Shown here in pieces: positions 18,873-38,008 of a stretch of DNA of 64,000 nucleotides. The position numbers and the translations under genes are program-made. Under the pieces are notes generated by a model, which did no database searches, had not been told where the DNA came from, and worked only from the letters and a program-made list of their open reading frames with translations. Each line of letters starts with the position of its first letter. Position 1 is the stretch's first letter. Source of the DNA: Parasedimentitalea psychrophila (GTDB lineage Bacteria > Pseudomonadota > Alphaproteobacteria > Rhodobacterales > Rhodobacteraceae); NCBI RefSeq assembly GCF_030285785.1, contig NZ_CP127247.1, forward strand, positions 4,611,501 to 4,675,500, read 5' to 3'.

Positions 18873-18947
18873 TCCGGCGTAGCTCAGCGGTAGAGCAGTT
18901 GACTGTTAATCAATTGGTCGTAGGTTCGATCCCTACCGCCGGAGCCA
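18873..18947 (+). tRNA. tRNA-Asn (anticodon GTT)
   Basis: The acceptor arm TCCGGCG (18873-18879) pairs with CGCCGGA (18937-18943). The D-arm AGCTCAGCGGTAGAGC and the T-arm GGTTCGATCC are standard, and anticodon GTT is at 18905-18907. The CCA end is encoded (18945-18947). Its 3' end is the attachment site of the genomic island that follows. Confidence 0.97.
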
Positions 18948-18950
18948 ATT
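18931..18950 (+). other. Island attachment site (left), in the tRNA-Asn 3' end
   Basis: The 20 bases from CCCTACCGCCGG through the tRNA end plus AATT are repeated exactly at 37891-37910. This is the expected mark of a tyrosine-recombinase element that enters at a tRNA 3' end and rebuilds the gene. Confidence 0.88.
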
Positions 18951-19048
18951 TCCCTTGATTTTGCTATATAGGCAAAGAAACCAAGGGGTATTGGACCCTT
19001 TTGGGACACTAAAGCTGATGAAGCCCTCCCCTCACATACCTGCGGCGT

Positions 19049-19606
19049 TTGGATGCCCTCAAGTACAGAGACTTCTTGCTAAAACGGGCCTCCCCCAACA
19101 GCGTGACCCGCTACGTCAATGTCATCAGAGCAGTGGTGAACCACACAATCGACGAGCGTGGCCTGTCGGTTAGCAACCCTTTCCACAAATTGCAGATCAA
19201 AGGCGCCGGGAATACTGCCGGAGACCGCCTAGGGTTGAAGACAGTAAGCAGCGAGCGACGGCTGCCTATATCTGACCGATTGGTCGAAGCGTTACAGGAG
19301 CATAGAGAGAACAAGCTGGAGGAGGCACCAATTTTTGATCGGTATGGTCGCGACAAAGGAAATACTGCAGCCTCAGCAACGATGATGAAACGCTTCAGGA
19401 AAGTCATCTCTGACCCCAAGAAGGCGTTGCACAGCCTACGGCACAGGAAGAAGGACGACCTGAGAAACACCAGTTGTCCTGAAGAAATCAGCAAAGTGAT
19501 CCTTGGTCACAGCAACAAAGAGGTCGCTGCACGGTACGGAGCTGGGTTCAAAATTGACGTGTTGCGCGACTGGATGGACAAATCCAACCTAGAGAATGGC
19601 CTATGA
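19049..19606 (+). pseudogene. Tyrosine recombinase (integrase) remnant, copy 1
   Basis: The frame encodes 185 residues of a phage-type integrase with SLRHRKKDDLRN (the HxxR-type box region), the GHSN motif and a final ARYG that would carry the nucleophilic tyrosine. The N-terminal DNA-binding domain and probably the first catalytic Arg region are lost; the frame is closed by TGA at 19019 and the first usable start is a TTG. The stop overlaps the next ORF by ATGA. It sits just downstream of tRNA-Asn, as expected for the enzyme that once integrated there. It is unlikely to be active alone. Confidence 0.82.
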
Positions 19607-20940
19607 CACCCTCCGGGAATTCAGGAGCAGCCCCGCTCAAGTCGGATCCAACGACTGACGATATTCCTGCCCGCCCTTTCAACCCACATCGTTGCTGTGC
19701 CTCCACTGCCATGACGGCGCTGGTCCAGGACGTTCTGCGATTCATGGAAGGGTATGAAGCCTACTATAAGAAGCGCAAACGAAGACGGAATGCTGCTGCT
19801 CAAGCCACCTACGAAGCCACAGTTGAAGCTGTTGTGTGTGATTTGGTTCACCGCCAGTTGGAAGTTCTTGGTGGGCAAGTTCATGTCACCCAAAGCCACC
19901 AGATCCTGCGATCGAAATCCCGCTACAAAGATGTGGCGCTTGGCAAGACCCTTTCTGATATCCTGAAGGTAATGTCTGCCGAAGAGATGTCTTTCATCAC
20001 TTTGACAGCGGGAGAACGTAAGTTCACGATCAAAGATCAGGCTTTGAACGTTGCCGTCAGCGGAAAACAGACAGTTCTTGGCTCGGGATCTAGGCTTTTG
20101 CGCCTGATTGAAGGCTCATGCATCACCTTTGCTGACATCGGACGAACACCTGATGAAGAAGTCATTCTGCTGAGAGAGCCTAAACAACGGGACGATAAAC
20201 CCGGAAAACTGGTCGACTATGCGGACACAGAAGAGACCCCTACCCTCAGAGAGCAGGTGCAGGTCATCAACACTTGACTGGAAAAGACAGACGTCTCCTG
20301 CTCCCTCCTGGACATCAACTCTCATAATCGTCGTCTGAAGCGCATATTTAACAACTCTGACTTTGCGCAGGGAGGCAGGCTGTATGGCGGATTCTGGCAA
20401 CTTTTGAAACACTCTGAACGTCTTGAAAACATTATGCTGGGCGAGGAATACGTTGCAGAGCTCGACTACGGCCAGATGGGTCTCATGCTGCTTTATGGAC
20501 TTGAGGGGACAACGCCTCCAGAAGGCGACCTCTACGACCTGTCTGAATTTGGTATCCCGACAAGCTGTCGTCCTGGCGTCAAGAAGGTCATTCAGGCGGC
20601 TATTAACGCCAGTAAACCTCTGGGACGCATGCCCAAGCGAGCCAAGAAAACCATCCCAAAGAGGATATCACTGACTGAAATACTTGAGGCAGTCAGCAAT
20701 AGGCATCCACTTATCGTTCATCGATTTTTTGCAGGGGTTGGCATGCTGCTTATGCGGCAGGAATCAGACATCCTTGTTTCTGTTCTTTTGGCTCTGAAAG
20801 ACAAGAACATACCAGCGCTCCCCGTTCATGATGCTGTGCTTGTGCCTGGGGAGAACGATATTGAGGCTCAGGAGGTCATGATCCGGGTATTCAAAGAGCA
20901 TGTCGACCTGACCCCAGAAGTCAGTATTGAGCACCCCTAA
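19603..20940 (+). pseudogene. Family-A DNA polymerase-like protein, split by an in-frame TGA
   Basis: One continuous frame of 446 codons is interrupted only by TGA at 20275 (codon 225). The second part has three polymerase-like motifs: VAELDYGQMGLML (motif A-like, about 20455), a basic helix GVKKVIQAAINAS (motif B-like, about 20576) and ALPVHDAVLVP (motif C-like, about 20818). It also has GGRLYGGFWQ upstream of motif A. Related hypothetical proteins in rhizobia and roseobacters share this pattern, by my memory of the family. The first 42 codons lie in the duplicated repeat and may not belong to the ancestral gene. Two pieces could be made separately (19603-20277 and a TTG-start piece from 20404), but a broken gene is simpler. 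Polymerase activity is inference. Confidence 0.6.
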
Positions 20941-21722: not shown

Positions 21723-22637
21723 TTACGCTGACCCGCTTGTTTGTTTTTTTACATCCCACGAAACGGATGCAAAAAGTGTCTCTTTCGCATGAGTAAGGTG
21801 TTCACGAAAGGCAGCCTCAGTCTTATCGAGATCGCCTGTTTCAAGAGCTGCGATGATTTTCAAGTGCTGCTCTGCCGCGTCGTGGTTGCGCTCCATCTCG
21901 TCGATCTTGTTCCAACGGTAATGGTAGTGAAAAACCAGAGAAACCAACTCAAAAAAATCGCGCACGAACCTGTTTCCAAATCCGTCGATCCAAATACGAT
22001 GGAATTTTTCATCGAGACGCGGAAATTGTAAAAAGTCCCGCTCCATATTTTGTAACAGCAGAGTGTGTTCGGGTTTCAGGCAGATTGCCTTGTGGTGTTC
22101 ATCTGGTCCTGCACCCAAAAACTGTAAGAATGCCTGATGTTCAAACATCTCTCGAACCGTAAATAGCTCTTCCGCGAAGTCACGGGTAAATCCATTCAAA
22201 ATCCAATGCCGATTAGGCTTCTTTTCGATCAAACCAAAGCGCGAAAATCGTATCAGGAATTCGCGAACAACAGTCGAGTTGACTTCAAAGTGCTTGGCCA
22301 ATTCGCTCTCAATAATTGCTTCACCAGGTACCAGTTCACCTGCAAAAATGTATTCCATAAAGAGTGATGACAGCCGTTCAACGTTAGAAGCCGTTTCTTC
22401 TTCAGGGAAATATTCATTAGCCTTAGGTTTACGCAGAACCGTTTTGGAACGACCGGTCCATCGGATGATATTTGCCGCCTGCAAACCGTTCAGAATGCCC
22501 CGCACAGTGGTCCGGCTAACATCCCATCTACGTGACAACGCAGTTTCAGTTGGTAAGTCGCCCCCAAGCTCAGTTTCACAGACCAGGTCCAAAGCACGAT
22601 TATAGCCTTGGTTGTAGGTGCTGCTAGTTCGAGACAT
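21723..22637 (-). CDS. GntR-family regulator with two winged-helix parts and an FCD domain
   Basis: The 304-residue protein has two GntR-like winged helices. The first (residues about 5-70) holds LPTETALSRRWDVSRTTVRG. The second (about 88-150) holds ESELAKHFEVNSTVVREFL and EKKPN. A C-terminal FCD-type helical effector domain (about 155-290) has FTVREMFEHQAF, metal-site-like histidines (DEKFHRIW, NHDAAEQHLKII) and REHLTHAKE. Normal FadR-subfamily members carry one winged helix. The gene follows the SDR of the catabolic block on the same strand after 160 bases and is the best candidate to control it, with a sugar acid as ligand. Confidence 0.85.
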   Translation of the reverse strand: MSRTSSTYNQGYNRALDLVCETELGGDLPTETALSRRWDVSRTTVRGILNGLQAANIIRWTGRSKTVLRKPKANEYFPEEETASNVERLSSLFMEYIFAGELVPGEAIIESELAKHFEVNSTVVREFLIRFSRFGLIEKKPNRHWILNGFTRDFAEELFTVREMFEHQAFLQFLGAGPDEHHKAICLKPEHTLLLQNMERDFLQFPRLDEKFHRIWIDGFGNRFVRDFFELVSLVFHYHYRWNKIDEMERNHDAAEQHLKIIAALETGDLDKTEAAFREHLTHAKETLFASVSWDVKKQTSGSA

Positions 22638-22797
22638 CTTCTAAAGCTCCCACTGGTTGTTCTGATCGAAATTCACGTAACGGTGTTTCGGCGTCCGTAG
22701 TAGCAAGTCTTAGGTTTGCATTCGACCCGAATTTCTAAAAGTGTCATGACCCGTCAACCAATCCAAGGCGTCTTTGCCGATCGACGCTTGGCTGCAT

Positions 22798-23553
22798 CTA
22801 AAACCCTGTCGCACCTCCGCCGTCTACTAGCACGACCTGTCCGTTGATATAGCGTGCTGCTGGCGAGGCCAAGAAGGCGCAGCACCAGCCGATATCCTCA
22901 GGTTGCCCAAGATGGCCCATAGGAATTCGGCTCATGATTTTTTGTTGCCGGGCAGGATCACCTTTGGTCGCATTACGGTAGATATCAGTGTCAATCCAAC
23001 CCGGGGCCACGCCGTTTACGCGAATACCACGCGCAGCAAATTCAGCCGAAAGCCCCCGCACTACTCCGTTGATCGCTGTTTTCGAAATTGTATAGCCAGA
23101 GACCATAGGTTGACCGATATAAGCCGTCATCGACGAAAGGAATTGCACTGTGCCGCCCCGCTCTTCGGCCAGCATCCGACGGATTACGTGTCGGCTCAAC
23201 TCAAGCGCACCACGTACATGAACGTCGAAGACCTGATCAAAATCAGCCATCGTCTGGTCTTCAAATGGTTTTTTAAGGGTATTTCCAGCGTTGTTCACAA
23301 GGATATCAACGGGTCCCAAGTCAGCCTCAAAGGCGGCAATGGCGTCCATTTGGGTCAAGTCGCAGGGCGCAATCTCGCAGCCGTGCCCGATTTCCTCGGC
23401 AGCCGCTTTCAACACGTTTTCGCGACGTCCCGCGATCGCGACATTGGCGCCGCTCTGCGCAAGGCAAGATGCGATAGCGCGGCCCAAGCCAGTGCCTCCG
23501 CCAGTGACCAAGGCCCGCTTGCCTTCAAGTCCGTAAATGTCGCTCAGGCTCAT
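22798..23553 (-). CDS. SDR-family oxidoreductase (gluconate 5-dehydrogenase/KduD-like)
   Basis: The 251-residue short-chain dehydrogenase has the cofactor motif TGGGTGLGRAI (about residue 18), NNAGN (about 85), the catalytic Ser in FLSSMTAY and the YTISKTA box with Tyr and Lys (about 150-155). It resembles enzymes that oxidise or reduce keto groups of sugar acids. It overlaps the zinc dehydrogenase gene by four bases (ATGA). In the proposed route it would be a tagaturonate-type reductase; in an L-fucose-type route it would be a 2-keto-3-deoxy-sugar-acid dehydrogenase. The family is secure, the substrate is inferred. Confidence 0.88.
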   Translation of the reverse strand: MSLSDIYGLEGKRALVTGGGTGLGRAIASCLAQSGANVAIAGRRENVLKAAAEEIGHGCEIAPCDLTQMDAIAAFEADLGPVDILVNNAGNTLKKPFEDQTMADFDQVFDVHVRGALELSRHVIRRMLAEERGGTVQFLSSMTAYIGQPMVSGYTISKTAINGVVRGLSAEFAARGIRVNGVAPGWIDTDIYRNATKGDPARQQKIMSRIPMGHLGQPEDIGWCCAFLASPAARYINGQVVLVDGGGATGF

Positions 23554-24581
23554 GAATTGGCTCCCATATCGATCATAATCTTAAAAGTCTCGTTGCGGTG
23601 GGCGTTCCAATAGTCCAGTGCCTGATCGGCGTTAGACCATGGAAAAACTTTGGAGATCAGCTTGTCCGCGACCTGCGGTTGCCCTTGGAGATAGTCGATC
23701 ACAGCCTCAAAATCCGCGCGTGTCGCGTTGCGCGATCCACAGATGTCCAATTCCTTGAGGTTGAACAGCGTCGTGTCATAGCTGACCTCGGCCTTGGCGT
23801 AGCCCACATAGACCACGCGGCCGGAAAATGGAGCAAGGTCGATGGCAGAGCGGAACGTGGCAGGCAACCCAACCGCCTCGATAACGACGTCCGGGCCAGC
23901 GCCTCCCGTGAGGTCGTCCAGCCGTGCCGCGATATCCTCGTCGTTGGGATTGATGATGGCCTCTACGCCGAGGCCTTTAAGCGTCTCGCTTTTGCTGGGG
24001 GAAACTTCACTGACGATCGTGCGCGCACCCATGGCCTGTGCGCCCAAAATGGCACCGACGCCGATCATACCACCGCCCAAAACGAGCACCGTATCTTCGG
24101 CAGACACCCGCCCCCGCGCCACAGCATGGAAACCCACCGAAAGGGGTTCAACCAGTGCCAAATAGTTCGGCGGCAAGGTGTCGTTCAGGATCAAACGGTC
24201 CGCCTTAAGTACGATTTGGCTGCATAAGCCACCGTCTTGTTGCACACCCAGTGTTTTGTTGAATTGGCAGGCATTGACCCGCCCTTTTCTGCAGGACGCG
24301 CAGGTGCCGCAGGTCGTATAAGGAATGACAATAGCTCGTTTTCCGATGGCTAAATCCTCAGAAACGCCTGGACCGCGCGCAGCAATTGCCCCTCCGATCT
24401 CATGACCCGGAATACGGGGCAATTGAACCAAAGGATTAAGCCCGTTGTATGTGTTCAGATCGCTGCCACACAGTCCGACGTAATGGACATCCAGCAGCAC
24501 ATCACCAGCTCCAAGAGTGGGCGCGAGATCACCTTCGCGGAATTCAGAATGTCCGATTTTGTCGATGACGAGAGATTGCAT
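23550..24581 (-). CDS. Zinc-dependent medium-chain dehydrogenase (LgoD/sorbitol dehydrogenase-like)
   Basis: The 343-residue MDR protein has the catalytic zinc ligands in GLCGSDLN (about residue 38) and PGHEIGG (about 60), the structural zinc cysteines in TTCGTCASCRKGRVNAC (about 90-107), a catalytic Glu in VEPLSVGFHA and the Rossmann motif VLGGGMIGVGAI (about 168). It resembles L-galactonate 5-dehydrogenase and polyol dehydrogenases. It lies between the binding-protein gene and the SDR on the minus strand. A role in oxidising an aldonate such as L-galactonate to a keto-acid fits the context. Confidence 0.85.
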   Translation of the reverse strand: MQSLVIDKIGHSEFREGDLAPTLGAGDVLLDVHYVGLCGSDLNTYNGLNPLVQLPRIPGHEIGGAIAARGPGVSEDLAIGKRAIVIPYTTCGTCASCRKGRVNACQFNKTLGVQQDGGLCSQIVLKADRLILNDTLPPNYLALVEPLSVGFHAVARGRVSAEDTVLVLGGGMIGVGAILGAQAMGARTIVSEVSPSKSETLKGLGVEAIINPNDEDIAARLDDLTGGAGPDVVIEAVGLPATFRSAIDLAPFSGRVVYVGYAKAEVSYDTTLFNLKELDICGSRNATRADFEAVIDYLQGQPQVADKLISKVFPWSNADQALDYWNAHRNETFKIMIDMGANS

Positions 24582-24642
24582 TATTGGGCTTTCATGTTTG
24601 AGGTTTGACAGGCAGGCGTGTGCCCGCCTGTCAGATGTTGTG

Positions 24643-25554
24643 TTATTGGAACTCAGCGACGTTATCGGCTGTGATCAAAATACCGGCGATTGGCACCAGA
24701 GCGGGCGCTTCTTCGCCTTTGATGAGGTTAAGAAGGTTTTGGACCGACTGAACGCCCATTTGGGTGTTGTCCTGCTTGATTGTCGCGGACTGTTCACCTT
24801 CTGAGATTGCGACCAAATTTGCAGGGTTGCCATCGAAACCGACAATCACGAGATCATCAAGTTTGCCAAGCGCATCAGCTGCGGACACAGCAGCAAGCGC
24901 ACCCGGATCCCAAGCCGAGAAGATGGCTTTGATGTCTGGGTTAGACTGCAAGAAGTTTGTGGTCGTCTCAAACGCACAGGCATCTTGCCAATCACAGATC
25001 TGGAAGATGACTTCGTGACCAGCGGCTTCAGCAGCGATCAAAACGCCATCACGACGTGCATTGCCTGTTTGGTGCCCAGCGGAACCGCCAAGGATCAGAA
25101 CCGTGCCTTCGCCGCCAAGCTCGCCGACAATGTAGTCGCCTGCAATACTAGCAGCCGCAAGGTTGTCAGTCTGCACCAGGCTCGCGACATGTGAATGGTC
25201 GATACCCGTGTCCACGGCCACAACAGGGATGCCAGCTGTCGCTGCATTGTCGAGCGATGAGTCGAACGCGCGGTTGTCGACTGAGCCGATGATGATACCG
25301 TCAACGCCCATGTCGATGGCGCGATCAACGGCATCTTTTTGGGCGGCGGCGTCAGGGGACGACGCGGTCATATCGATGAATTCAACACCTTGGCGTTCTG
25401 CCTCTTCACTGGCAGCGTTCGCAACGCCGATCCAGAACGTGTTGTCTGTCGAATAGCCCGTGTATGCGATACGCAGATCTGCGGCGATGGCAGCACTGCT
25501 CATGCCAAGCACCAGAGCGGCGGCCGTTGCGGCGGTTTTAAGTTTAATAGTCAT
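24643..25554 (-). CDS. Sugar ABC transporter substrate-binding protein (RbsB/CUT2 type)
   Basis: The 303-residue periplasmic protein begins with a signal peptide (KTAATAAALVLGMSSAAIAA, cut before DLRIAYTG). The peripheral-binding fold is shown by VDGIIIGSVDN, VVAVDTGIDHS and VIVGFDGNPANL near the ends of the domains. It feeds the permease and ATPase encoded upstream on the same strand. CUT2 receptors bind monosaccharides such as ribose, fucose or galactose; the present ligand is likely the sugar degraded by the block. The gap to the permease gene is 58 bases. Confidence 0.9.
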   Translation of the reverse strand: MTIKLKTAATAAALVLGMSSAAIAADLRIAYTGYSTDNTFWIGVANAASEEAERQGVEFIDMTASSPDAAAQKDAVDRAIDMGVDGIIIGSVDNRAFDSSLDNAATAGIPVVAVDTGIDHSHVASLVQTDNLAAASIAGDYIVGELGGEGTVLILGGSAGHQTGNARRDGVLIAAEAAGHEVIFQICDWQDACAFETTTNFLQSNPDIKAIFSAWDPGALAAVSAADALGKLDDLVIVGFDGNPANLVAISEGEQSATIKQDNTQMGVQSVQNLLNLIKGEEAPALVPIAGILITADNVAEFQ

Positions 25555-25612
25555 TTAGTCCTCCCAGTTTAAGAATTGGCCCGTTTTGAGCCTGTTATTG
25601 CGCAGTGAAAGA

Positions 25613-26602
25613 TCACCGTGCCGATCGTCGCCAGACATCCCAGTAGACAGCCATGATGATAATCGCCCCGATTGCGATGCGCTGGTATGAAGTGCCGATG
25701 CCCATATATGACAGACCGACAATGATGGTTTGCATGATGAGCATGCCCAAAAGCGTCTTACCGACGCCGCCCCGTCCGCCGAACAGGCTGGTGCCGCCGA
25801 TAACAACCGCAGCGATGGCATAAAGCTCATAGCTTTGACCGCGTGCGGGCATGGCGAAGTTCAGCTTTGACACTTCGATGACGGCAGCGAGACCTGCCAA
25901 AAGACCGCCAAGCATGTAATAATAAATCCGGCTTTTCGCGATGGGAACGCCCGACAAGCGGGCAACTTCTTCGTTGCCACCAATGGCAAAGGCACGGCTG
26001 CCCAAACGTGTTTTGGTCAGGAACAATCCGGTCAGAATTGCCGCGCCAAACATGATGATCACCGGTGTGACATTGCCAGTCCCCAAAAACCTGAAGGCGT
26101 CTGGAAAGCGCGACAAATCACGGCCGCTGGCCAGAATTTCTGCAACGCCCTTGTAGGCCGTCAAGCCGCCCAAAGTGACGATAAACGCAGGCACCTTGGT
26201 GACAACCTGAATGGCACCATTCAGCGCGCCTAGCCCCGCGCCAATCAACAGCCCCAAACCGACGGCTGCAACTGGGCTCAAGCCCCATTCTGCCAAGAAT
26301 ATACCGACCGCGACGCCCACCACCGCAAAGATAGATCCTACCGACAGATCAAGCCCACCAGAGATCAGAACAATCGTTGTCCCGCATGCCAGAATGGCGA
26401 GAATAGAGGCCTGGCCGAAGATTGACAGCAACGTGTCTAAGCTGCGAAACGGCGGCGACATGACAAAGAAGAAAGTGTAGATAATGGCCAGTGCAGCAAC
26501 CACCTGCCAAATCTGCATAAAGCTGTGCTTGAGCAGATCAAAGCTGCTTGCTGCGCTGCCGGGGCTGGACACGGACGTCGAGCTGTTTTGAACCTGGCTC
26601 AT
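25613..26602 (-). CDS. Sugar ABC transporter permease (RbsC/CUT2 type)
   Basis: The 329-residue inner-membrane protein has eight or more hydrophobic segments and the CUT2 hallmarks GGLDLSVGSIFAV (about residue 105) and AIGGNEEVARLSGVPI (about 230). It overlaps the ATPase gene by four bases. It forms the channel through which the sugar passes, with the ATPase subunit on the cytoplasmic side. Confidence 0.92.
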   Translation of the reverse strand: MSQVQNSSTSVSSPGSAASSFDLLKHSFMQIWQVVAALAIIYTFFFVMSPPFRSLDTLLSIFGQASILAILACGTTIVLISGGLDLSVGSIFAVVGVAVGIFLAEWGLSPVAAVGLGLLIGAGLGALNGAIQVVTKVPAFIVTLGGLTAYKGVAEILASGRDLSRFPDAFRFLGTGNVTPVIIMFGAAILTGLFLTKTRLGSRAFAIGGNEEVARLSGVPIAKSRIYYYMLGGLLAGLAAVIEVSKLNFAMPARGQSYELYAIAAVVIGGTSLFGGRGGVGKTLLGMLIMQTIIVGLSYMGIGTSYQRIAIGAIIIMAVYWDVWRRSAR

Positions 26603-27381
26603 GCTTTGACCTCCGCAGCGGCGGCGCCGGTGATCAGGCCCACAAGCGTGTCGCCATCCACATCTTTCACATCGCGCTCGGCCACCAACCGGCCAAGGCG
26701 CAACACCATCACGCGGTCGCAGTAATTCAAGACATGCTCCATATTGTGAGTGATCATAATGACCGAAAGCCCGTGGTCTTTGAGCGACCGGACAAGGTCC
26801 ATCGCCATTTTGCTTTCGCGCACCCCGAGGGCTGCAGTCGGCTCATCCAGAATGGCGATACGTTTGCCAAACAGGACAGTTTTGGACAGGGCTACAGCCT
26901 GTCGCTGCCCCCCCGAAAACGCTTGCGCGTCACGGTAGATGTCGGCAATGCGCACATCCAGCTTGGCAAAAAGATCGCGAATTTCTGCATCCATCTTCTT
27001 AAAGTCGAGGACGCCAAAAACTCGGCCGAGCCAGTCGGACCGCACGATCTCGCGACCCAAATACACGTTCTTTGTGATCGAGATTTCGTTCACCAGCGCA
27101 AGATCCTGGTAGACCGTCTCAATGCCGGCGGCTTTCGCATCAGAAGGGCTATCGATTTGCAACTCCTGCCCGTCGAACCGGATCACTCCGGACGTGCGCG
27201 GAATCGCACCCGTCAGCGCCTTGATCAGCGTCGACTTTCCGGCACCATTGTCCCCTACGACAGCAAGCACTTCGCCCTCATAGAGTGTCAGATTGACGTC
27301 ATCCAATGCGACGACGCCTCCGTAGTGCTTTGATATGCCCTGTGCTTCTAGCACCGGTTGGGCTTGTCTCGTGTTTGTCAT
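26599..27381 (-). CDS. Sugar ABC transporter ATP-binding protein, single-domain
   Basis: Starting at ATG 27381, which has a strong GGGGGAAAGC site, the protein is 260 residues. It has Walker A VGDNGAGKSTLIKAL (about residue 39), the signature FSGGQRQAVALSK, Walker B IAILDEPTAALG and the switch histidine in VIMITHNMEHV. It is half the length of RbsA, which has two fused ATPase domains, so it must act as a homodimer, as in FrcA-like systems. It is first in the minus-strand transcription unit of the block. Confidence 0.92.
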   Translation of the reverse strand: MTNTRQAQPVLEAQGISKHYGGVVALDDVNLTLYEGEVLAVVGDNGAGKSTLIKALTGAIPRTSGVIRFDGQELQIDSPSDAKAAGIETVYQDLALVNEISITKNVYLGREIVRSDWLGRVFGVLDFKKMDAEIRDLFAKLDVRIADIYRDAQAFSGGQRQAVALSKTVLFGKRIAILDEPTAALGVRESKMAMDLVRSLKDHGLSVIMITHNMEHVLNYCDRVMVLRLGRLVAERDVKDVDGDTLVGLITGAAAAEVKA

Positions 27382-27506
27382 GCTTTCCCCCCAGCGCATA
27401 TGGCTGCAGTACGATGTTGTTATGTTTATTATCGATAAAAAACATTTTACTTGCCGTCAACTGTTTTTTTTGCAAAGTATACATTAGCAAATTGGGGAAA
27501 ACTAAC
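27382..27506. promoter_or_regulatory. Divergent promoter region of the sugar block
   Basis: The 125 bases between the ATPase gene and the small dehydratase subunit must hold both promoters. They contain a perfect palindrome TTATCGATAA (27429-27438) and the 6-bp palindrome GTATAC (about 27477) in AAAGTATACATT, a shape common in GntR/FadR operators. The region is AT-rich relative to its flanks. Regulation by the local GntR gene is inferred. Confidence 0.55.
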
Positions 27507-27818
27507 ATGCCAATAGAAGAACTGAATTTTGTCCGGCTGCTACATTTGCACCCTAAGGACAATATTGCAGTCCTTGCGCAGGACGGTAAGAAAGGCGCAT
27601 CGGCAAAACTGCAGGAAACAGAGCTAATACTCCCTTGTGACCTCCCAATGGGGCACAAGTTGGCGATTGGCCCGATTGGCAAAGGGACAGAGATTCTCAA
27701 ATACGGCGCACCAATCGGAACAGCCACATGCGAGATCGTGCCTGGCGATCATGTGCATCTACACAATATTAAAAGCCAATATACAGTAATTGAAGACATG
27801 GAGGCGGGCCAGACATGA
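27507..27818 (+). CDS. UxaA-type dehydratase small subunit (SAF domain)
   Basis: The 103-residue protein matches the N-terminal SAF domain of altronate/galactarate dehydratases (FVRLLHLHPKDNIAVLA, PMGHKLAIGPI, YGAPIGTATCEI, HVHLHN). ATG 27507 is chosen because GGGGAAAA precedes it. It overlaps the large-subunit gene by four bases (ATGA), so the two are made in step. Enzymes with this split form include sulfolactate sulfo-lyase (SuyA/SuyB) and sugar-acid dehydratases. The HVHLHN segment is likely part of the active site. Confidence 0.85.
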   Translation: MPIEELNFVRLLHLHPKDNIAVLAQDGKKGASAKLQETELILPCDLPMGHKLAIGPIGKGTEILKYGAPIGTATCEIVPGDHVHLHNIKSQYTVIEDMEAGQT

Positions 27819-29017
27819 GTGCACTAATGACAGGCTGGTTGCGAAATGACGGACGCAAAGGCATTCGCAACACAGTGCTCGTCGCATATTTGGTGGAGTG
27901 TGCGCATCACGTTTCCAAGAAAATTGCGCGTGAGTTTCCTGAAACCGACGTGCAAGTCATCGGATTTTCGGGTTGCTTTCCAAGCCCCTACGGGCAAGAC
28001 ATGATGGAGGCTCTTTGCACACACCCCAATGTGGGTGCGGTCCAGTTGGTGTCCTTGGGCTGCGAGAATTTTCGCAAGGCTGATCTGGTACGCGCAATTG
28101 AAGCCTCGGGTCGAACTGTCAATCTAATCACCATTCAGCAAACCGGCGGCACGCGCAGTGCTGTTGACGCAGGCCGGGCCTGGGTGCGTGATACCCTGGC
28201 TGCGCTCGCCCAGATCCCGCGCGTTCCGATGGAGCCATCAGAGTTGGTCATCGGCACCATCTGTGGTGGTTCGGACGCCACCTCTGGTCTGACGGGCAAC
28301 CCAGCAGCGGGACGTGCGTTTGATCGTTTGGTGACCGAAGGGGCCACCTGCATCTTCGAAGAAACCGGAGAACTGATCGGATGTGAACATGTCATGGCCG
28401 CCCGGGCGTCCACGCCAGCGCTGAGGAATGAACTGATCGCTACAGTCAAGAAAGCCGAACAATATTATGCCGCGATGGGGTACGGGTCTTTTTCGCAAGG
28501 CAACGCGACCGGAGGTCTGTCGACTATCGAAGAAAAATCTCTGGGCGCCTATGCCAAGTCAGGCGACAGCGAAATCTGTGGCATCTTGCGTCCAGCTGAA
28601 CGGGCTACCACCGGCGGGCTATATTTGCTTGATGTTGTTCCTGACGGTGCGCCGAAGTTCGGTTTTCCCAATATCAACGACACAGCCGAAATCATCGAGC
28701 TGATTTCCTGCGGCGCCCATGCGGTGATCTTTGTCACAGGGCGCGGGTCGGTTGTGGGATCGGCAATCTCTCCGGTGCTTAAAGTCTGCGCCAATCCGGA
28801 CACATATGCGCGCATGTCCGAAGACATGGATGTCAACGCTGGTCGTATTCTAACCGGCGACGCGACTCTGTCCGAGGTCGGGGATGAAATCTACAACAAG
28901 CTCGTAGCGCTCGGAACCGGCGAGATGACAGCGTCAGAAGACCTGGGGCACACCGAATTTGTCCTCACCTATAAAAATCCGACACAGGCCGAACCTGGCT
29001 GCCAAACTGCGACATAA
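27815..29017 (+). CDS. UxaA-type dehydratase large subunit (altronate dehydratase-like)
   Basis: The 400-residue protein matches the main domain of the UxaA/GarD family: GWLRNDGRKGIRNTVLV at the N-terminus, GFSGCFPSP, VSLGCENF, QQTGGT, GTICGGSDATSGLTGNP (about 145-160) and the late VIFVTGRGSVVGSAISPVLKV. Family members are Fe2+-dependent lyases that remove water from sugar acids such as D-altronate to give 2-keto-3-deoxy acids. With the small subunit it would form the complete enzyme. Substrate by context is an aldonate made from the imported sugar. Confidence 0.88.
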   Translation: MSALMTGWLRNDGRKGIRNTVLVAYLVECAHHVSKKIAREFPETDVQVIGFSGCFPSPYGQDMMEALCTHPNVGAVQLVSLGCENFRKADLVRAIEASGRTVNLITIQQTGGTRSAVDAGRAWVRDTLAALAQIPRVPMEPSELVIGTICGGSDATSGLTGNPAAGRAFDRLVTEGATCIFEETGELIGCEHVMAARASTPALRNELIATVKKAEQYYAAMGYGSFSQGNATGGLSTIEEKSLGAYAKSGDSEICGILRPAERATTGGLYLLDVVPDGAPKFGFPNINDTAEIIELISCGAHAVIFVTGRGSVVGSAISPVLKVCANPDTYARMSEDMDVNAGRILTGDATLSEVGDEIYNKLVALGTGEMTASEDLGHTEFVLTYKNPTQAEPGCQTAT

Positions 29018-29024
29018 GCGAGAC

Positions 29025-29984
29025 ATGATGTTATTACCGGATCACAAACTTTCCTTTGGCTGCGCCAGCGTAGCGGGCCTATTCAAACCCGTGAATTCTC
29101 AAGAGGCACATGATGTGCTGACCACAGCATGGAACGCGGGCATTCGCTATTTCGACACAGCGCCCCATTACGGCCATGGCGTGTCCGAGCGGCGTTTAGG
29201 TGATTTCTTGCGGGACAAAAGCGGTTGGGTGATTTCTACCAAGGTAGGCCGTATCCTTACGCCAGATCTGAACCCACCAAATATAGCGAATGGGCTTCAC
29301 AGTGCCCTGCCCTTTAAGCAAGAATTCGATTTCAGCTATGATGGGATCATGCGGTCTGTCGACGACAGTTTTCAGCGACTTGGGCTGAACCGGATCGACA
29401 TTCTCTATGTCCATGACATCGGTGACCCAGGCGCTGGCACTGACACCCCGCACCACCGCGCGCAGTTGTTGGATGGCGGCCACCGCGCGCTCAGCGATCT
29501 GAAATCTCAAGGCGTCATTTCATCTGTAGGGCTCGGTGTGAACACCGTCGAAATATGCGAAGGCTTGCTGGGGCAGATGGAGATTGACCTGATCTTGCTT
29601 GCTGGCCGCTACACCTTATTGGAACAAACAGCTGAAGTACGATTGTTCCCCTTATTGGAACAACACGGCGTAAAACTGGTAATCGGCGGTGTGTTCAATT
29701 CTGGCATACTGGCGACAGGTCCGGTGGCGGGTGCACATTACAACTACGCCCCTGCCCCGCAATCCATTCTGGACAGAACGACCCAGATCGAATCAGTTTG
29801 TGCCCGCCACAACGTGCCCATGGCAGCAGCGGCTTTGCAATATCCAGCACAAAGCCCGCATGTGGCGTCCACCCTGATTGGCACGTCCAAATCCAGTTCT
29901 CTTTTGCGCAATGTCACCCAGTTTGAAATGCCGCTGCCCACAGACCTTTGGGCGGACTTACGGCGCGAGAATTTGATAACCTGA
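29025..29984 (+). CDS. Aldo/keto reductase (L-fucose/D-threo-aldose 1-dehydrogenase-like)
   Basis: About 319 residues from ATG 29025, which follows the dehydratase stop by seven bases. The catalytic tetrad is visible: Asp and Tyr in FDTAPHYGHG (about residues 45-52), Lys in STKVGR (about 77) and His in YVHDIGD (about 128). LLAGRYTLLEQ (about 190) is typical of the subgroup that oxidises L-fucose, L-galactose or D-arabinose at C1 to lactones. It is thus the likely first step of the route. A longer start at 28959 overlaps the dehydratase gene and is less likely. Confidence 0.86.
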   Translation: MMLLPDHKLSFGCASVAGLFKPVNSQEAHDVLTTAWNAGIRYFDTAPHYGHGVSERRLGDFLRDKSGWVISTKVGRILTPDLNPPNIANGLHSALPFKQEFDFSYDGIMRSVDDSFQRLGLNRIDILYVHDIGDPGAGTDTPHHRAQLLDGGHRALSDLKSQGVISSVGLGVNTVEICEGLLGQMEIDLILLAGRYTLLEQTAEVRLFPLLEQHGVKLVIGGVFNSGILATGPVAGAHYNYAPAPQSILDRTTQIESVCARHNVPMAAAALQYPAQSPHVASTLIGTSKSSSLLRNVTQFEMPLPTDLWADLRRENLIT

Positions 29985-29994
29985 GGGCAACACT

Positions 29995-30834
29995 ATGATG
30001 ATCGATAGCCACCAACATTTCTGGTCATTGGCGCGTGGGGATTATCCCTGGCCGGATGAAAGCGTCGCCTCAATTTTTCGAGACTTCGGTCCGCAAGACC
30101 TGATCGAATTGCTTAAGGCATCGGGTGTGTCGCAGACCGTGCTTGTGCAGGCAACGGATAGTATCGCAGAAACGGAATTCCTGCTTGATATTGCCACCCA
30201 AAACAACTTCGCCAAGGGGGTCGTTGGCTGGGTCGATCTTGACGATGCCGCCGCGCCCACGTTTTTGGATAAGTTCGCGCAAAATGCGGCCTTCAAGGGG
30301 GTCCGGCCAATGTTGCAAAACATTGACGACACCAATTGGATATTGCGGCCAAATGTACTTGCCAATCTTGCCGAAGTGGCGGCTCGCGGATTGCGGATGG
30401 ATGCCTTGATCCTGCCGCGTCACCTGGAGGTTTTAGCACGGGTTGCAGAAGCCTTAACCGACCTGCCCATCGTGATTGACCATTGCGCCAAACCCATCAT
30501 CGCAAACGGCGCGGATGCCAGTGAAAACTGGCGCACAGGCATGGCAAACCTAGCGCGTTTCCCGAATGTTTTCTGTAAGATTTCAGGTCTTGCAACTGAG
30601 GTCGGACCAAGTTGGAGCGTTGACGGCCTTCAGCACGTGATTGATCATGTCATCGCGCAGTTCGGCCCCAAAAGGGTGATGTGGGGCAGCGACTGGCCGG
30701 TGATCAATCTTGTTGGCGATTACGGCAAATGGCGGCGCGCGTCTGATCAATTGTTCAATGGCTTAACCAAAGCCGACCGTGCCCGTGTTTATGGCGGAAC
30801 GGCTGCTCAGTTCTACGGTTTGGAGATCAAATAA
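29995..30834 (+). CDS. Amidohydrolase-family sugar lactonase (L-fuconolactonase-like)
   Basis: The 279-residue protein starts MMIDSHQHFWSLARGDYPW, which carries the metal-binding HxH motif and the aromatic pair of the L-fucono/L-rhamnono-lactonase group. Further ligands are seen in VIDHCAKP (about residue 160) and WGSDWPVIN (about 233). It hydrolyses the lactone made by the aldo/keto reductase to the free aldonate. Its stop overlaps the start of the kinase gene by one base (TAATG), so the genes are tightly coupled. Confidence 0.88.
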   Translation: MMIDSHQHFWSLARGDYPWPDESVASIFRDFGPQDLIELLKASGVSQTVLVQATDSIAETEFLLDIATQNNFAKGVVGWVDLDDAAAPTFLDKFAQNAAFKGVRPMLQNIDDTNWILRPNVLANLAEVAARGLRMDALILPRHLEVLARVAEALTDLPIVIDHCAKPIIANGADASENWRTGMANLARFPNVFCKISGLATEVGPSWSVDGLQHVIDHVIAQFGPKRVMWGSDWPVINLVGDYGKWRRASDQLFNGLTKADRARVYGGTAAQFYGLEIK

Positions 30835-32075
30835 TGACCCTTCGCATCGCTTGCATCGGCGAGCCCTTGGCTGAAATTTCTCATTACGGAGAAACTTTCG
30901 GCGTTGGCTTTGCAGGTGACACACTCAACACCGCGATCTACTGTGCCCGCGAAGCCAAAGGCCATGACATAGACGTCCAATACGTCTGCGCAATTGGCCA
31001 TGACGCCTTGTCAGAAGGTGCACTGAACTTAATGAGGCGCGAAGGACTGGGCACCAATTACGTCACGCGTGACCCAGCGCGGCAGATCGGCATATATGCC
31101 ATCCAGAACGACATTCACGGAGAGCGGAGCTTTCATTATTGGCGCGACAGTTCTGCGGCGCGCCAGATGTTTTCTACCGATGCCTCGCCTCATCTTAAAT
31201 CGATCAAATCGGCCGATTTGGTTTATCTGTCAGGCATAACCCTCGCGATCCTCAGCCAAGACGCGCGTGACAGGCTTTGGCGCGCCTTGGCTGAGCAGCG
31301 TGCATCCGGCTTAAAAGTTGCCTTTGACAGCAACTATCGGCCCAACCTCTGGGAAACACCAGAAATCGCTAGCCGCGAAATCGCCCGATTTTGGAAAATC
31401 ACCGATATCGCCCTACCCACGCACGAAGACGAAACCGCCCTGTTCGGTGATGCTGAGCGCAGGGCCATCCTCGACCGGATCCTCGCAACAGGGCCCAAAA
31501 CGGGTGCTCTCAAATGTGGCCAGGATGGTCCTATTCAGATTCCGCACTCCGCTGAGACTTCCAGTTACAAAGCCGCAGAAACGGTCATCGACACCACCGG
31601 TGCGGGAGACAGTTTTAACGGCGCCTACCTGGCCGCGATTGCGTCGGGCAAGCCCGAACGAACCGCTCTCGCCCTGGCACATGATTTGGCCCGCCGTGTG
31701 GTCGGGCATAAGGGCGCTATCCTACCGCAAAATCCGATACGGCCTGCGCAGCGTATGGGCAGTGTGATCGGCCTGAGGCCGGAAGACCTGGATGAATATG
31801 TAAAACTACACGCAAACGTCTGGCCCGGCGTGTTGGCGCGCCTGAAGGCCTCGCATTTCACAAATTATTCGATCTACCTCAAAGAACCAGAATGCCTGAT
31901 GTTTGGGTACTTTGAATACACTGGGGATGATTTTGACACCGACAACGCAGCTATTGCCAACGATCCGATCACACAGGACTGGTGGAAAGTGTGTGGTCCA
32001 ATGCAAGTACCACTGGAAATTCGCAACCAGGGAGAATGGTGGGCGGAAATGCGCGAAGTCTTCCACATGGACTGA
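30834..32075 (+). CDS. Fusion of PfkB-family sugar (KDG-like) kinase and RhaM-type sugar mutarotase
   Basis: The 413-residue protein has two parts. Residues about 1-300 are a PfkB kinase: GEPLAEIS at the N-terminus, YLSGITLA, FDSNYRPNLW, and the ATP/anion-hole motif DTTGAGDSFNGAYLA (about 245-260) with the catalytic Asp in GAGDS. It is close to 2-keto-3-deoxygluconate kinases. Residues about 308-413 form a dimeric alpha/beta-barrel mutarotase of the RhaM/DUF718 family: EDLDEYVKLHANVWPGVLARL, NYSIYLKEPECLMFGYFEY, DPITQDWWKVCGPMQ. The two parts normally occur as separate genes. It ends the plus-strand operon. The mutarotase would speed up anomer exchange for the first dehydrogenase; the kinase would phosphorylate the 2-keto-3-deoxy acid. 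Confidence 0.88.
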   Translation: MTLRIACIGEPLAEISHYGETFGVGFAGDTLNTAIYCAREAKGHDIDVQYVCAIGHDALSEGALNLMRREGLGTNYVTRDPARQIGIYAIQNDIHGERSFHYWRDSSAARQMFSTDASPHLKSIKSADLVYLSGITLAILSQDARDRLWRALAEQRASGLKVAFDSNYRPNLWETPEIASREIARFWKITDIALPTHEDETALFGDAERRAILDRILATGPKTGALKCGQDGPIQIPHSAETSSYKAAETVIDTTGAGDSFNGAYLAAIASGKPERTALALAHDLARRVVGHKGAILPQNPIRPAQRMGSVIGLRPEDLDEYVKLHANVWPGVLARLKASHFTNYSIYLKEPECLMFGYFEYTGDDFDTDNAAIANDPITQDWWKVCGPMQVPLEIRNQGEWWAEMREVFHMD

Positions 32076-33144: not shown

Positions 33145-34392
33145 ATGCCTGCTACAATCAAATATGCCTATCTGAAGCAGCAAACATGGCTGTACCGGCG
33201 AAACTACCCCAAACACCTTCAGCCCTATCTTGGGCAGGCACTGAAGCGGACCCTGAAGACCGGAGACGCAAGAGTAGCCAAGGCTCGCGTTGTCGAGGTC
33301 AATGCCAGCTACGCCAAGGTCGTCCATGAGGCTGAAACACAGGTCAACTCAGCAAACGGACAGCCGATCGATCATCGCGTTGTAGTCACGGGGCCAACTA
33401 CAAAGTTCCAGCGCGCCACTGTTCTAGGCCAGGTTTCGGTCAGAGATCTGGCGCAGGTTTATTTACCCACTCGATTTGACGATCTTAGTCCAGGGGCCTT
33501 CAAGTCGGTACGGTTCAGCCTTGGCCTTCTGGTTTCATACTTAGGTCACAGGAAGATCAGCGACCTCAGCAGAACGGATGGTCAGACGTTTCTCGGACTG
33601 ATCGCCAAACTCTCCCCTGACGTTGCCAAATCCATTGCGGCCAAGGGGAAAAGTCTGAAACGGCTTGTAGCACTCTCCAAAGGGACAGGGAAAACGATCT
33701 CAACACAGACCCAGAAGCGGATCTGGAAACAAGTCTGCCAATTCCTGGATTGGGCGACGAGTGAAGGTCACACCGGCGGGCATTGCTTCAGTGCTCTGAA
33801 AGTATCAGGCAAAGTATCGGTGCAAAGTTATGCTGTCCTCTCTGATCCTGAGGTGACGACACTGCTAACGGCAAATGATCCTGACCTCACGCCCATACTT
33901 TTGCTCTGCTTGCTATCAGGTCTGCGCTCAGGGGAGGCCTGTGGGATCCTAGCTGAAGACCTCGTGACAAGGGACAATCACGGTATCTTTGTCAGGGTCC
34001 GACCAAACGGGATCAGAGGATTGAAATCCAAGGCCGCTGAGCGCGAAGTACCACTTCACGACCAATGGCTGCCAATCCTTCAAACTCTGCCCTGCGAAGG
34101 ACCCCTGTTCCCCGACCTCAGTGTTGACAGGGTCACCAAACGGTTCACGAGCTTGCGGCGGAAACTTGATCTGAGCCGTCCAGGATTGGTGTTTCACTCG
34201 ACCCGGAAGTGGTTCATCACCCAGTGTGAGCGGACCGGCGTCCCGGAACACTTTACTGCAAGTCTTGTGGGACACCAGTCAGCGCGATCAGAGAACAAAC
34301 TCACCTATGGGCTTTACTCTGCCGGGATCAGCGACAGCCAGAAACGTGAGATCGTGGATCAGGTGAAGTTGCCAGTAGCGGTACTGCTGTAA
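33145..34392 (+). CDS. Full-length tyrosine recombinase (integrase)
   Basis: The 415-residue protein has an N-terminal DUF6538-like arm (YLKQQTWLYRRNYPKHLQPY), a core-binding region (about 95-215) and a complete catalytic domain. The catalytic Arg is in LLSGLRSGEACGI (about residue 262), the HxxR box is in FHSTRKWFITQCER (about 350), the second His is in VGHQS (about 377) and the nucleophilic Tyr is in LTYGLYSAG (about 390). GGAGG precedes ATG 33145. It is the only integrase in the window that looks active, and may be the enzyme of the island or a passenger. Confidence 0.87.
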   Translation: MPATIKYAYLKQQTWLYRRNYPKHLQPYLGQALKRTLKTGDARVAKARVVEVNASYAKVVHEAETQVNSANGQPIDHRVVVTGPTTKFQRATVLGQVSVRDLAQVYLPTRFDDLSPGAFKSVRFSLGLLVSYLGHRKISDLSRTDGQTFLGLIAKLSPDVAKSIAAKGKSLKRLVALSKGTGKTISTQTQKRIWKQVCQFLDWATSEGHTGGHCFSALKVSGKVSVQSYAVLSDPEVTTLLTANDPDLTPILLLCLLSGLRSGEACGILAEDLVTRDNHGIFVRVRPNGIRGLKSKAAEREVPLHDQWLPILQTLPCEGPLFPDLSVDRVTKRFTSLRRKLDLSRPGLVFHSTRKWFITQCERTGVPEHFTASLVGHQSARSENKLTYGLYSAGISDSQKREIVDQVKLPVAVLL

Positions 34393-37910: not shown

Positions 37911-38008
37911 CCCCTTGATTTTGCTATAAGTGCAAAGAAACCAAGGGGTATTGGACCCTTTTGGGACACTAAAGCTGATGAAGCCCTCCCCTCACATACC
38001 TGCGGCGT

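What the first reader, a model, noticed from the sequence alone, without database searches (positions are those of the whole stretch)
21723..32075. Island-borne block that could be a complete L-galactose route through altronate to KDPG
The enzymes line up as a path: mutarotase domain, aldo/keto reductase (C1 oxidation), lactonase, LgoD-like zinc dehydrogenase (L-galactonate to tagaturonate), SDR (to altronate, in place of UxaB), split UxaA dehydratase (to KDG), PfkB kinase (to KDPG), plus a CUT2 importer and GntR control. Known pieces of this path are spread over several systems; having all of them in one mobile block with a split dehydratase would be new to me. L-galactose is found in red-algal polysaccharides, which suits a marine host. 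The L-fucose route explains AKR, lactonase and SDR, but not the LgoD-like enzyme or the kinase.
Basis: partly seen in the sequence, partly recalled or inferred. Interest (0 to 1): 0.78.

Follow-up and report, generated by a model that had tools for sequence, protein, structure and literature searches.

The report
Mosaic island operon for L-galactose catabolism
A marine-type bacterium carries, on a mobile island, a hybrid gene cluster that most likely imports the rare sugar L-galactose and burns it through altronate; the route itself is known, but this version seems to be put together from two different systems and uses unusual enzymes for several steps.

Summary
Window 21723-32075 holds two intact divergent operons: GntR regulator, SDR, zinc dehydrogenase (ZnDH) and CUT2 importer; split UxaA-type dehydratase, aldo/keto reductase, lactonase and a KDG-kinase/mutarotase fusion. 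They lie in a 19-kb island between 804-bp direct repeats that start in a tRNA-Asn.

(1) Three same-genus genomes, without this ZnDH, carry another cluster joining LgoD-like, UxaB-like and full-length UxaA-type enzymes to a similar lactonase and the same fusion. (2) In Primorskyibacter sedentarius a UxaB-like reductase stands in for the SDR. (3) The host has a separate L-fucose cluster and no other clear KDG kinase.

The claimed novelty does not hold: Luteolibacter has a proven L-galactose route by these steps, mostly in one cluster. What appears new is the assembly: regulator-to-AKR genes are Cognatishimia/Shimia-type, whereas kinase-mutarotase (and probably lactonase) side with the genus's other cluster; an RraA-family gene common in the former is absent, and the kinase is present. 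Verdict: new variant of a known kind.

The parts
21723..22637 (-). GntR/FCD regulator (two HTH matches), probable local regulator
   Evidence: Pfam GntR 52.9 bits (2 stretches), FCD 51.4 bits
22798..23553 (-). SDR, proposed D-tagaturonate reductase (C5) giving D-altronate
   Evidence: Pfam adh_short_C2; Rossmann and YxxxK motifs; a UxaB-like reductase stands in for it in L062
23550..24581 (-). Zinc-dependent MDR dehydrogenase, proposed L-galactonate 5-dehydrogenase
   Evidence: Pfam ADH_N/ADH_zinc_N; 34% to E. coli LgoD; zinc motifs present; a homologue of 40% or more lies within 8 kb of the split dehydratase in 25 of 97 loci, with the SDR in 22
24643..25554 (-). CUT2 sugar-binding protein
   Evidence: Pfam Peripla_BP_4; nearest solved proteins are mostly ribose- and allose-binding
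25613..26602 (-). CUT2 permease
   Evidence: Pfam BPD_transp_2
26599..27399 (-). CUT2 ATPase (single ABC domain)
   Evidence: Pfam ABC_tran
27438..27468 (.). Candidate operator: inverted repeat AAAAACATT-N13-CTGTTTTT type between the divergent operons
   Evidence: consensus with at most 2 mismatches in 11 of 18 window-type loci, 37-76 bp from the ATPase match; 1 such hit in 1.80 Mb of 95 control loci; motif chosen after seeing these loci
27507..27818 (+). Small (SAF-like) subunit of the split UxaA-type dehydratase
   Evidence: start at 27507; 34% to the E. coli UxaA N-terminus; found in 96 of 97 related loci
27815..29017 (+). Large subunit of the split UxaA-type dehydratase, proposed D-altronate dehydratase
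   Evidence: Pfam GD_AH_second and GD_AH_C; 4 cysteines invariant with E. coli UxaA and GarD; in a 13-row clade of ZnDH-associated rows only
29025..29984 (+). Aldo/keto reductase, proposed L-galactose 1-dehydrogenase
   Evidence: top 5 solved relatives are L-galactose dehydrogenases; start (29028 or a TTG at 28959 also possible)
29995..30834 (+). Amidohydrolase lactonase, proposed L-galactonolactonase
   Evidence: NCBIfam L-fucono-1,5-lactonase 199 bits, cut-off 400
30834..32075 (+). Fusion protein: KDG kinase domain (aa 1-302) plus L-fucose-type mutarotase domain (aa 305-413)
   Evidence: NCBIfam KdgK 282 bits, cut-off 400; solved ketodeoxygluconokinases and L-fucose mutarotases 7byu/7byw among the best matches
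33145..34392 (+). Tyrosine integrase of the island
   Evidence: Pfam Phage_integrase
18873..18947 (+). tRNA-Asn(gtt), integration site
   Evidence: ARAGORN
18926..19728 (.). Left 804-bp direct repeat, with an integrase fragment 19049-19606
37886..38688 (.). Right 804-bp direct repeat, with the same fragment 38009-38566

Best explanation
The block is an L-galactose utilisation system on a tRNA-Asn island, with a mosaic origin. A CUT2 ABC importer brings in the sugar, and the mutarotase domain equilibrates its anomers. The AKR oxidises C1 to the lactone and the lactonase opens it to L-galactonate. The zinc dehydrogenase oxidises C5 to D-tagaturonate and the SDR reduces C5 from the other face to D-altronate, so the pair acts as a C5 epimerase. 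The two-subunit dehydratase makes KDG, the kinase domain makes KDPG, and a chromosomal KDPG aldolase finishes. The GntR protein probably acts at an inverted repeat between the divergent operons. Shown: gene content, intact motifs, island setting, co-occurrence and mosaic phylogeny. Inferred: every substrate, the order of the C5 epimerisation and dehydration steps, and the regulation.
For: AKR: the five best solved relatives are all L-galactose dehydrogenases. Lactonase: L-fuconolactonase-like. Mutarotase: best solved relatives are L-fucose mutarotases, and L-fucose is 6-deoxy-L-galactose. Kinase: KdgK-like; a C6 kinase needs a 6-OH, which L-fucose-derived acids lack; no other clear KdgK in the genome (next PfkB 27%). 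Three KDPG-aldolase-family genes lie elsewhere. ZnDH homologues lie within 8 kb of the split dehydratase in 25 of 97 loci, 22 of them with the SDR, and the association needs at least 4 changes on the dehydratase tree. Swaps: in L062 a UxaB-like reductase (tagaturonate reductase model, 172 bits, cut-off 359) stands in for the SDR. In G007 ZnDH and a UxaB-like gene lie about 5-6 kb from a uronate isomerase gene (589 bits, cut-off 387), the type of enzyme that makes tagaturonate. The 3 same-genus genomes examined, plus G193 and G211, have LgoD-, UxaB- and UxaA-like genes with a related lactonase and the same kinase-mutarotase fusion. The same steps are proven in Luteolibacter (PMC12632266; abstract, introduction, first part of the results, section on steps after tagaturonate, and discussion read).
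Against: No enzyme was assayed. ZnDH, SDR, lactonase and kinase all miss the curated NCBIfam cut-offs (174/376; SDR best model 'glucose 1-dehydrogenase' 201/215, KduD 181/338.85; 199/400; 282/400 bits), although 0 of 15 genomes searched, and 1 of 14 controls, passed the KdgK cut-off. The UxaB-like stand-ins also miss theirs. Related split dehydratases sit in 26 of 97 loci with L-fucose genes and 47 with neither set, so this family is not specific to altronate. A published family member preferred D-arabinonate (100%) to D-altronate (12%), L-fuconate (5.6%) and L-galactonate (2.4%) (PMC6336799, passages). In G007 a sensor-kinase-like gene and another regulator stand between ZnDH/UxaB and the isomerase. 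The host has no GH16 match, so a red-algal polymer source is unsupported. The binding protein's nearest solved relatives bind ribose or allose.
Confidence: 0.66

Rival explanations
1. Dehydration comes first: the split dehydratase acts on L-galactonate to give L-KDGal; ZnDH and the SDR then epimerise C5 through the 2,5-diketo acid to KDG, which the kinase phosphorylates.
For: Split dehydratases in L-fucose clusters presumably act on L-fuconate, which has the L-galacto configuration (26 of 97 loci); PMC6336799 (passages) names a heteromeric L-fuconate dehydratase and an L-galactonate dehydratase from gene context. The SDR scores 181 bits on KduD, which works on 2-keto-3-deoxy acids, and a chain deposited as 2-deoxy-D-gluconate 3-dehydrogenase is among its top three solved relatives.
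Against: In L062 a UxaB-like reductase stands in for the SDR, and in G007 ZnDH and a UxaB-like gene lie near a uronate isomerase gene: both point to tagaturonate. The genus's other cluster uses the LgoD, UxaB and UxaA types. The one published family member with figures is better on D-altronate (12%) than on L-galactonate (2.4%) (PMC6336799, passages).
Confidence: 0.17
2. The block is an L-fucose or D-arabinose pathway (non-phosphorylating) and the kinase and zinc enzyme are incidental.
For: AKR, lactonase, mutarotase and split dehydratase all have L-fucose-pathway relatives; a published AKR accepts D-arabinose, L-fucose and L-galactose (PMC6336799, passages).
Against: The block lacks the KDF dehydrogenase and FAH hydrolase that mark L-fucose clusters. 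The host has them in a separate cluster with an enolase-type dehydratase (L146). A 6-deoxy acid cannot be phosphorylated at C6. Only 1 of 97 loci has both gene sets near the dehydratase.
Confidence: 0.07
3. The block serves another sugar or sugar acid of similar shape (L-gluconate/L-glucose or D-idonate), as in Paracoccus strain 43P, with C5 epimerisation by two dehydrogenases.
For: 43P uses the same logic: C5 epimerisation by LgnH and LgnI, dehydratase, kinase, aldolase (PMC12632266, introduction read). The 43P proteins themselves were not compared here.
Against: The kinase is KdgK-like (282 bits on the KdgK model, 102 on the KDG/KDGal model), and AKR, lactonase and mutarotase all point to L-galacto sugars.
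Confidence: 0.05

Closest known systems
Luteolibacter sp. LG18 lgu cluster (PMC12632266)
   Same: AKR L-galactose dehydrogenase, L-galactonate dehydrogenase, tagaturonate reductase, altronate dehydratase, KDG kinase, KDPG aldolase; the same intermediates
   Different: LguC is annotated as an altronate oxidoreductase and LguB is one gene; the kinase lies outside the cluster and works better with PPi; no lactonase, mutarotase or importer is named in the lgu cluster; a different phylum. Sequences were not compared here
Other cluster of the same genus and of G193/G211 (L186-L188, L169, L170)
   Same: Lactonase 59-62%, kinase-mutarotase fusion 65-71% and 72-77%, AKR, GntR, CUT2
   Different: LgoD-like, UxaB-like and full-length UxaA-type enzymes instead of ZnDH, SDR and split dehydratase; 4 of the 5 loci also carry the L-fucose KDF dehydrogenase and FAH hydrolase
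Cognatishimia/Shimia/Roseobacter-type clusters (11 loci: L032, L052-L060, L180)
   Same: Importer (where present), ZnDH, SDR, GntR, split dehydratase and AKR at 42-88% identity
   Different: 10 of 11 carry an RraA-family gene next to the SDR; 8 of 11 a mutarotase gene that is not fused to a kinase; no KdgK gene near
Halomonas / Chromohalobacter L-galactonate loci (PMC5507952, passages)
   Same: lgoD, uxaA and uxaB (or uxaF) in one locus with L-fucose/L-fuconate genes
   Different: TRAP importer for the acids, other enzyme types
Heteromeric L-fuconate dehydratase of Paraburkholderia mimosarum (PMC6336799, passages)
   Same: UxaA/GarD-family dehydratase made as two subunits
   Different: Assigned by its authors, from gene context, to L-fucose metabolism

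Membership tests
L-galactose pathway via tagaturonate/altronate (Luteolibacter / P. vulgatus kind) | Genes for C1 dehydrogenase, C5 dehydrogenase, C5 reductase, altronate dehydratase-type enzyme, KDG kinase and KDPG aldolase in the genome | tested here: met
   Enzyme classes; the aldolase is elsewhere on the chromosome
L-galactose pathway via tagaturonate/altronate (Luteolibacter / P. vulgatus kind) | Enzymes act on L-galactose, L-galactonate, tagaturonate, altronate and KDG | not testable with these tools
   Needs assays
LgoD equivalog (best model NF007489) | Score above the curated cut-off | tested here: not met
   174 bits, cut-off 376; 34% to E. coli LgoD
UxaB (mannitol dehydrogenase family tagaturonate reductase) | Mannitol_dh domains | tested here: not met
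   The window protein is an SDR; UxaB-like proteins occur in L062, G007 and the other cluster
UxaA/GarD dehydratase superfamily | GD_AH domains and the four conserved cysteines | tested here: met
UxaA/GarD dehydratase superfamily | SAF domain in the same chain (usual form) | tested here: not met
   Separate gene at 27507-27818; the two-gene form holds in at least 96 of 97 relatives
KDG kinase (KdgK) | PfkB fold, GAGD motif, KdgK best hit | tested here: met
   curated cut-off not reached (282 of 400 bits)
L-fucose pathway (KDF dehydrogenase + FAH hydrolase type) | KDF dehydrogenase and FAH hydrolase in the block | tested here: not met
   Absent in the window; present in L146 elsewhere in the genome
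tRNA-integrated genomic island | tRNA 3' end duplicated, integrase, atypical composition | tested here: met
   the repeats are 804 bp, longer than a usual att site, and hold integrase fragments

The most novel reading that the evidence does not exclude
The RraA-family protein next to the SDR in most Cognatishimia/Shimia-type relatives is an unrecognised aldolase that cleaves unphosphorylated KDG (and its RraA cousins beside other split dehydratases cleave the matching 2-keto-3-deoxy acids). In the window lineage a recombination replaced the lactonase-mutarotase end by lactonase plus kinase-mutarotase fusion from a different L-galactose cluster, and the RraA gene was lost. That switched one operon from a non-phosphorylating to a phosphorylating Entner-Doudoroff branch. 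The SDR would then be a tagaturonate reductase outside the UxaB family.
Probability: 0.3. Interest if true: 0.62.

Novelty: new variant of a known kind. Interest (0 to 1): 0.47.

Why it matters
L-galactose is a minor but real sugar of marine and plant polymers (recalled), and few bacterial pathways for it have been proven. The locus offers natural swaps (SDR for UxaB-like, split for whole dehydratase, kinase present where an RraA-family protein is absent, RhaM-type for FucU-type mutarotase) that make the functions of three poorly assigned protein families directly testable. It also suggests how a catabolic operon can be rebuilt by recombination between two non-homologous systems for what is probably the same substrate.

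Tried and rejected
Tried without result: the Watanabe 2019 Mol Microbiol paper on L-galactose (10.1111/mmi.14259) and PMC6996899 are not held, so what I recall of the former (an Acidovorax route with C5 epimerisation by two dehydrogenases) is recall only; its title was seen in the reference list of PMC11199699. PMC6952198 gave no passages for the terms, and PMC3141670 only reference-list matches. PMC5385347 and PMC6946681 (passages) added nothing used here. A palindrome search upstream of the genes gave no site shared by all; the inverted repeat came from reading those sequences by eye and was then scanned. The promoter and terminator scan was uninformative: 11 promoters found against 7.4 expected, 10 terminators against 12.4. 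The lactonase tree alone does not place the window firmly (fork support 54/32; unresolved).

Considered and rejected: frameshift artefact for the split dehydratase; L-fucose pathway (markers absent here, present elsewhere in the host); the island as a source of algal-polymer degradation (no GH16 match in the genome; 7 sulfatase-family matches, one with inner stops at the window's edge, none inside the island).

The 97 loci are these plus L180, after leaving out seven loci that duplicate others (L063, L114, L174, L176, L178, L179, L181), the window, reference loci and L175 and L182; L050 gave no hit and L177 no UxaC in the stretch fetched. L051, a near-copy of the window's block, is among the 97. 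The locus without a small-subunit match is L097, which has an ORF there. For one search, six duplicates were dropped (L176 was left in and equals L101). For one search, L039, L062 (its AKR extraction was empty and crashed) and a second lactonase of L057 were left out, and L033 was in the trees but not in the tested groups. In one search, 95 control loci, without the duplicates that had inflated; with 3 mismatches the controls have 8 hits in 5 loci.

Results against the kinase/RraA swap: the relation is only suggestive. RraA-positive G311 and G451 also have strong KdgK matches (273 and 254 bits), G210, G352 and G364 score 202-212, and only G315 and G337 have none above 140 bits. L054, L033 and the two Geminicoccus loci (L069 is only 4 kb long) have ZnDH and SDR but neither the RraA gene nor a kinase near by. 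A second RraA subfamily (at least 40% identical to that of L097) occurs in 49 of the 97 loci, many with L-fucose or unassigned genes, so RraA-family genes accompany the split dehydratase widely and not the L-galactose type alone.


Full report
OBSERVATION. The window lies at G000:C1:4611501-4675500 of a 5.0-Mb genome; the nearest named record with this block is a Rhodobacteraceae MAG (L051). Signature motifs are intact: catalytic and structural zinc motifs in the dehydrogenase, Rossmann and YxxxK motifs in the SDR, GAGD in the kinase (the meaning of these motifs is recalled). The dehydratase large subunit keeps four cysteines that are invariant across E. coli UxaA, GarD and the other rows aligned (C29, C54, C83, C150; 9 rows). 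PMC6336799 (passages) reports four conserved cysteines as the likely iron site of this superfamily; I did not map its numbering onto ours. The small subunit starts at 27507 and overlaps the large one by 4 bases (and sequence). The mutarotase is the C-terminal 109 residues of the kinase protein.

ISLAND. An 804-bp direct repeat, 96.9% identical, stands at 18926-19728 and 37886-38688. It begins inside the 3' end of tRNA-Asn 18873-18947 and includes the same fragment of a tyrosine integrase on both sides. An intact integrase is at 33145-34392, and transposase genes with rve domains lie at 35660-37278. GC falls from 0.575-0.59 in the flanks to 0.46-0.56 inside. In the three same-genus genomes examined, identity to the window at this site stops at the end of the tRNA (position 18947). 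All three also have a further copy of the tRNA or its 3' end 14-16 kb downstream, so the site looks like an integration hotspot. The MAG L051 has the block 97.8% identical over 13.3 kb.

WHAT THE ENZYMES RESEMBLE. The five best solved relatives of the AKR are L-galactose dehydrogenases. The lactonase's best model is L-fucono-1,5-lactonase, below its cut-off. The mutarotase domain's best solved relatives are L-fucose mutarotases (7byu, 7byw). The kinase domain is KdgK-like and no other clear KdgK is in the genome; the next PfkB protein is 27% identical. Three KDPG-aldolase-family genes exist elsewhere; one lies beside what look, by eye, like other Entner-Doudoroff genes (L148). The zinc enzyme is 34% identical to E. 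coli LgoD. The SDR has no decisive match: its best model is a glucose 1-dehydrogenase subfamily (201 bits, cut-off 215), and KduD and gluconate 5-dehydrogenase models score 181-186 bits, below their cut-offs.

RELATIVES. A scan of genome contigs gave 80 named loci of the dehydratase large subunit, the best 80 of at least 580, and family- and order-level searches gave further unnamed ones. After removal of duplicates, 97 loci outside the window were scored within 8 kb of the dehydratase. 96 have a small-subunit match. 25 have a ZnDH homologue of at least 40% identity: 22 with the SDR, one with a UxaB-like gene, two with neither. 26 have the L-fucose markers (KDF dehydrogenase plus FAH hydrolase), 1 has both sets and 47 have neither. 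A KdgK-like gene is near only in L051. The ZnDH association needs 7 changes on the dehydratase tree, 4 of them forced by starred branches, against 21.9 in shuffles (quick tree). The window sits in a fully ZnDH-associated clade of 13 rows (support 100).

WHICH C5 ROUTE. L-galactonate and D-altronate share C2, C3 and C4 (PMC6336799, passages), so they differ at C5 only, and two dehydrogenases acting in turn can epimerise one into the other. Three comparisons favour epimerisation before dehydration. First, Primorskyibacter sedentarius (L062) has ZnDH (64%), split dehydratase (71%), AKR, lactonase and GntR but no SDR match in the 21-kb locus; a UxaB-like reductase (172 bits on the tagaturonate reductase model, cut-off 359) lies between dehydratase and AKR. 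Second, in G007 ZnDH and a UxaB-like gene lie about 5-6 kb from a uronate isomerase gene, whose product with galacturonate is tagaturonate; other genes stand in between, so this is weaker. Third, three same-genus genomes (G313, G564, G570), which have no ZnDH match at E <= 1e-75, carry elsewhere a cluster of lactonase, kinase-mutarotase fusion, UxaB-like, AKR, GntR, CUT2, LgoD-like and full-length UxaA-type genes; G193 and G211 have it too. The full-length fusion was found in 3 of 295 sampled family genomes (the host, G193, G211) before the same-genus ones were looked at. Steps of this kind are proven in Luteolibacter: LguA on L-galactose, LguD on L-galactonate, LguC on tagaturonate, LguB on altronate, LguH on KDG (PMC12632266; abstract, introduction, part of the results and discussion read). 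The opposite order is not excluded, because related split enzymes sit in L-fucose clusters.

WHY NOT L-FUCOSE. The block lacks the KDF dehydrogenase and hydrolase. The host has them in a separate chromosomal cluster with an enolase-type dehydratase and its own mutarotase (L146). A C6 kinase is of no use for a 6-deoxy acid (inference).

MOSAIC ORIGIN. Against Roseobacter sp. H9 (L052) the window's ATPase, permease, binding protein, ZnDH, SDR, dehydratase large subunit and AKR are 71-88% identical, GntR 66% and the small subunit 60%, but the lactonase is 51% and the mutarotase 65%. Against the same-genus cluster the lactonase is 61-62% and kinase and mutarotase 69-71% and 76-77%, while AKR is 47%. 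Trees agree for the ends and are softer for the lactonase. The mutarotase groups with that cluster (99/94 starred), and the seven fusion kinases form one clade (93/93). For the lactonase, a clade of the window with eight Cognatishimia/Shimia-type rows is rejected (AU p 0.0024) and one with the genus type is not (p 0.417), though the free tree shows neither. For the AKR, a clade with the genus type is rejected (p 7e-38) and one with the Cognatishimia/Shimia type stands (90/90). The junction therefore most likely lies between AKR and lactonase. The host lacks the genus's other cluster: its only strong kinase match is on the island, and the orthologue of one flank of that cluster (L186) is present without it. 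The flanks in L187 and L188 do not match that place, so the cluster's site differs between sister genomes and this is not proof of loss.

KINASE VERSUS RraA. An RraA-family gene, of a subfamily at least 40% identical to that of L053, lies near the dehydratase in 15 of 97 loci, all 15 with ZnDH, usually next to the SDR. It is absent from the window; the host's only RraA match is 24% identical and lies in what looks, by eye, like an aromatic-degradation cluster. The window has the kinase instead. A second RraA subfamily is present in 49 further loci, so 64 of 97 split-dehydratase loci have an RraA-family gene: the family seems tied to the dehydratase's product in general. RraA folds include metal aldolases, and one member acts on a 2-keto-3-deoxy hexarate (PMC8563752, passages). 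That the protein cleaves KDG is thus a reasonable but untested idea; the genome profile of KdgK is only suggestive (see Tried and rejected).

REGULATION. An inverted repeat AAAAACATT-N13..15-AATGTTTTT lies at 27438-27468 between the divergent operons. With at most 2 mismatches it is found in 11 of 18 window-type loci, 37-76 bp from the ATPase match, and in 14 of 18 with at most 3; it occurs once at 2 mismatches in 1.80 Mb of 95 control loci. The five loci of the other cluster type have none. The motif was defined on these loci, so the control measures background only.

NOVELTY. The route is known, so 'a complete L-galactose route' is not new. Nine searches of open-access papers (lists capped, for instance 12 of 458 shown) listed no paper whose title or abstract start treats an L-galactose pathway in this family, a KDG kinase fused to a mutarotase, or an SDR as tagaturonate reductase; subscription papers are mostly not held, and two relevant ones could not be read. 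Filed as a new variant of a known kind.

Noticed in passing
L062:13310-14827 (Primorskyibacter sedentarius): A sulfatase gene follows directly after the AKR of this L-galactose-type cluster, and its mutarotase is of the FucU type; this hints at sulfated L-galactose as a source there.
   Followed up: partly
21723-22637: The GntR protein shows two separate GntR helix-turn-helix matches before its FCD domain, an unusual layout.
   Followed up: no
L182:8174-10144 (G210): A second AKR-ZnDH-SDR trio (62%, 41% and 43% identity), about 9-10 kb from the main cluster: possibly a paralogous route for another sugar.
   Followed up: no
18873-18947 and sister genomes L191-L193: tRNA-Asn looks like an integration hotspot in this genus; sister genomes carry other 14-16 kb stretches that end in a further copy of the tRNA or its 3' end.
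   Followed up: partly
1-441: The window starts inside a sulfatase-family match with two inner stops (G000:C1:4611324-4611941), probably a decayed gene.
   Followed up: no
L190:9413-10767 (G007): A KDG kinase gene lies directly beside a FucU-type mutarotase gene: the same pairing as the window's fusion, with another mutarotase family and not fused.
   Followed up: partly
L071-L094 and others, UxaN/UxaC loci: 47 of 97 split-dehydratase loci, many in Bosea, have neither L-galactose nor L-fucose markers; their substrate is unassigned. Many have an RraA-family gene.
   Followed up: no
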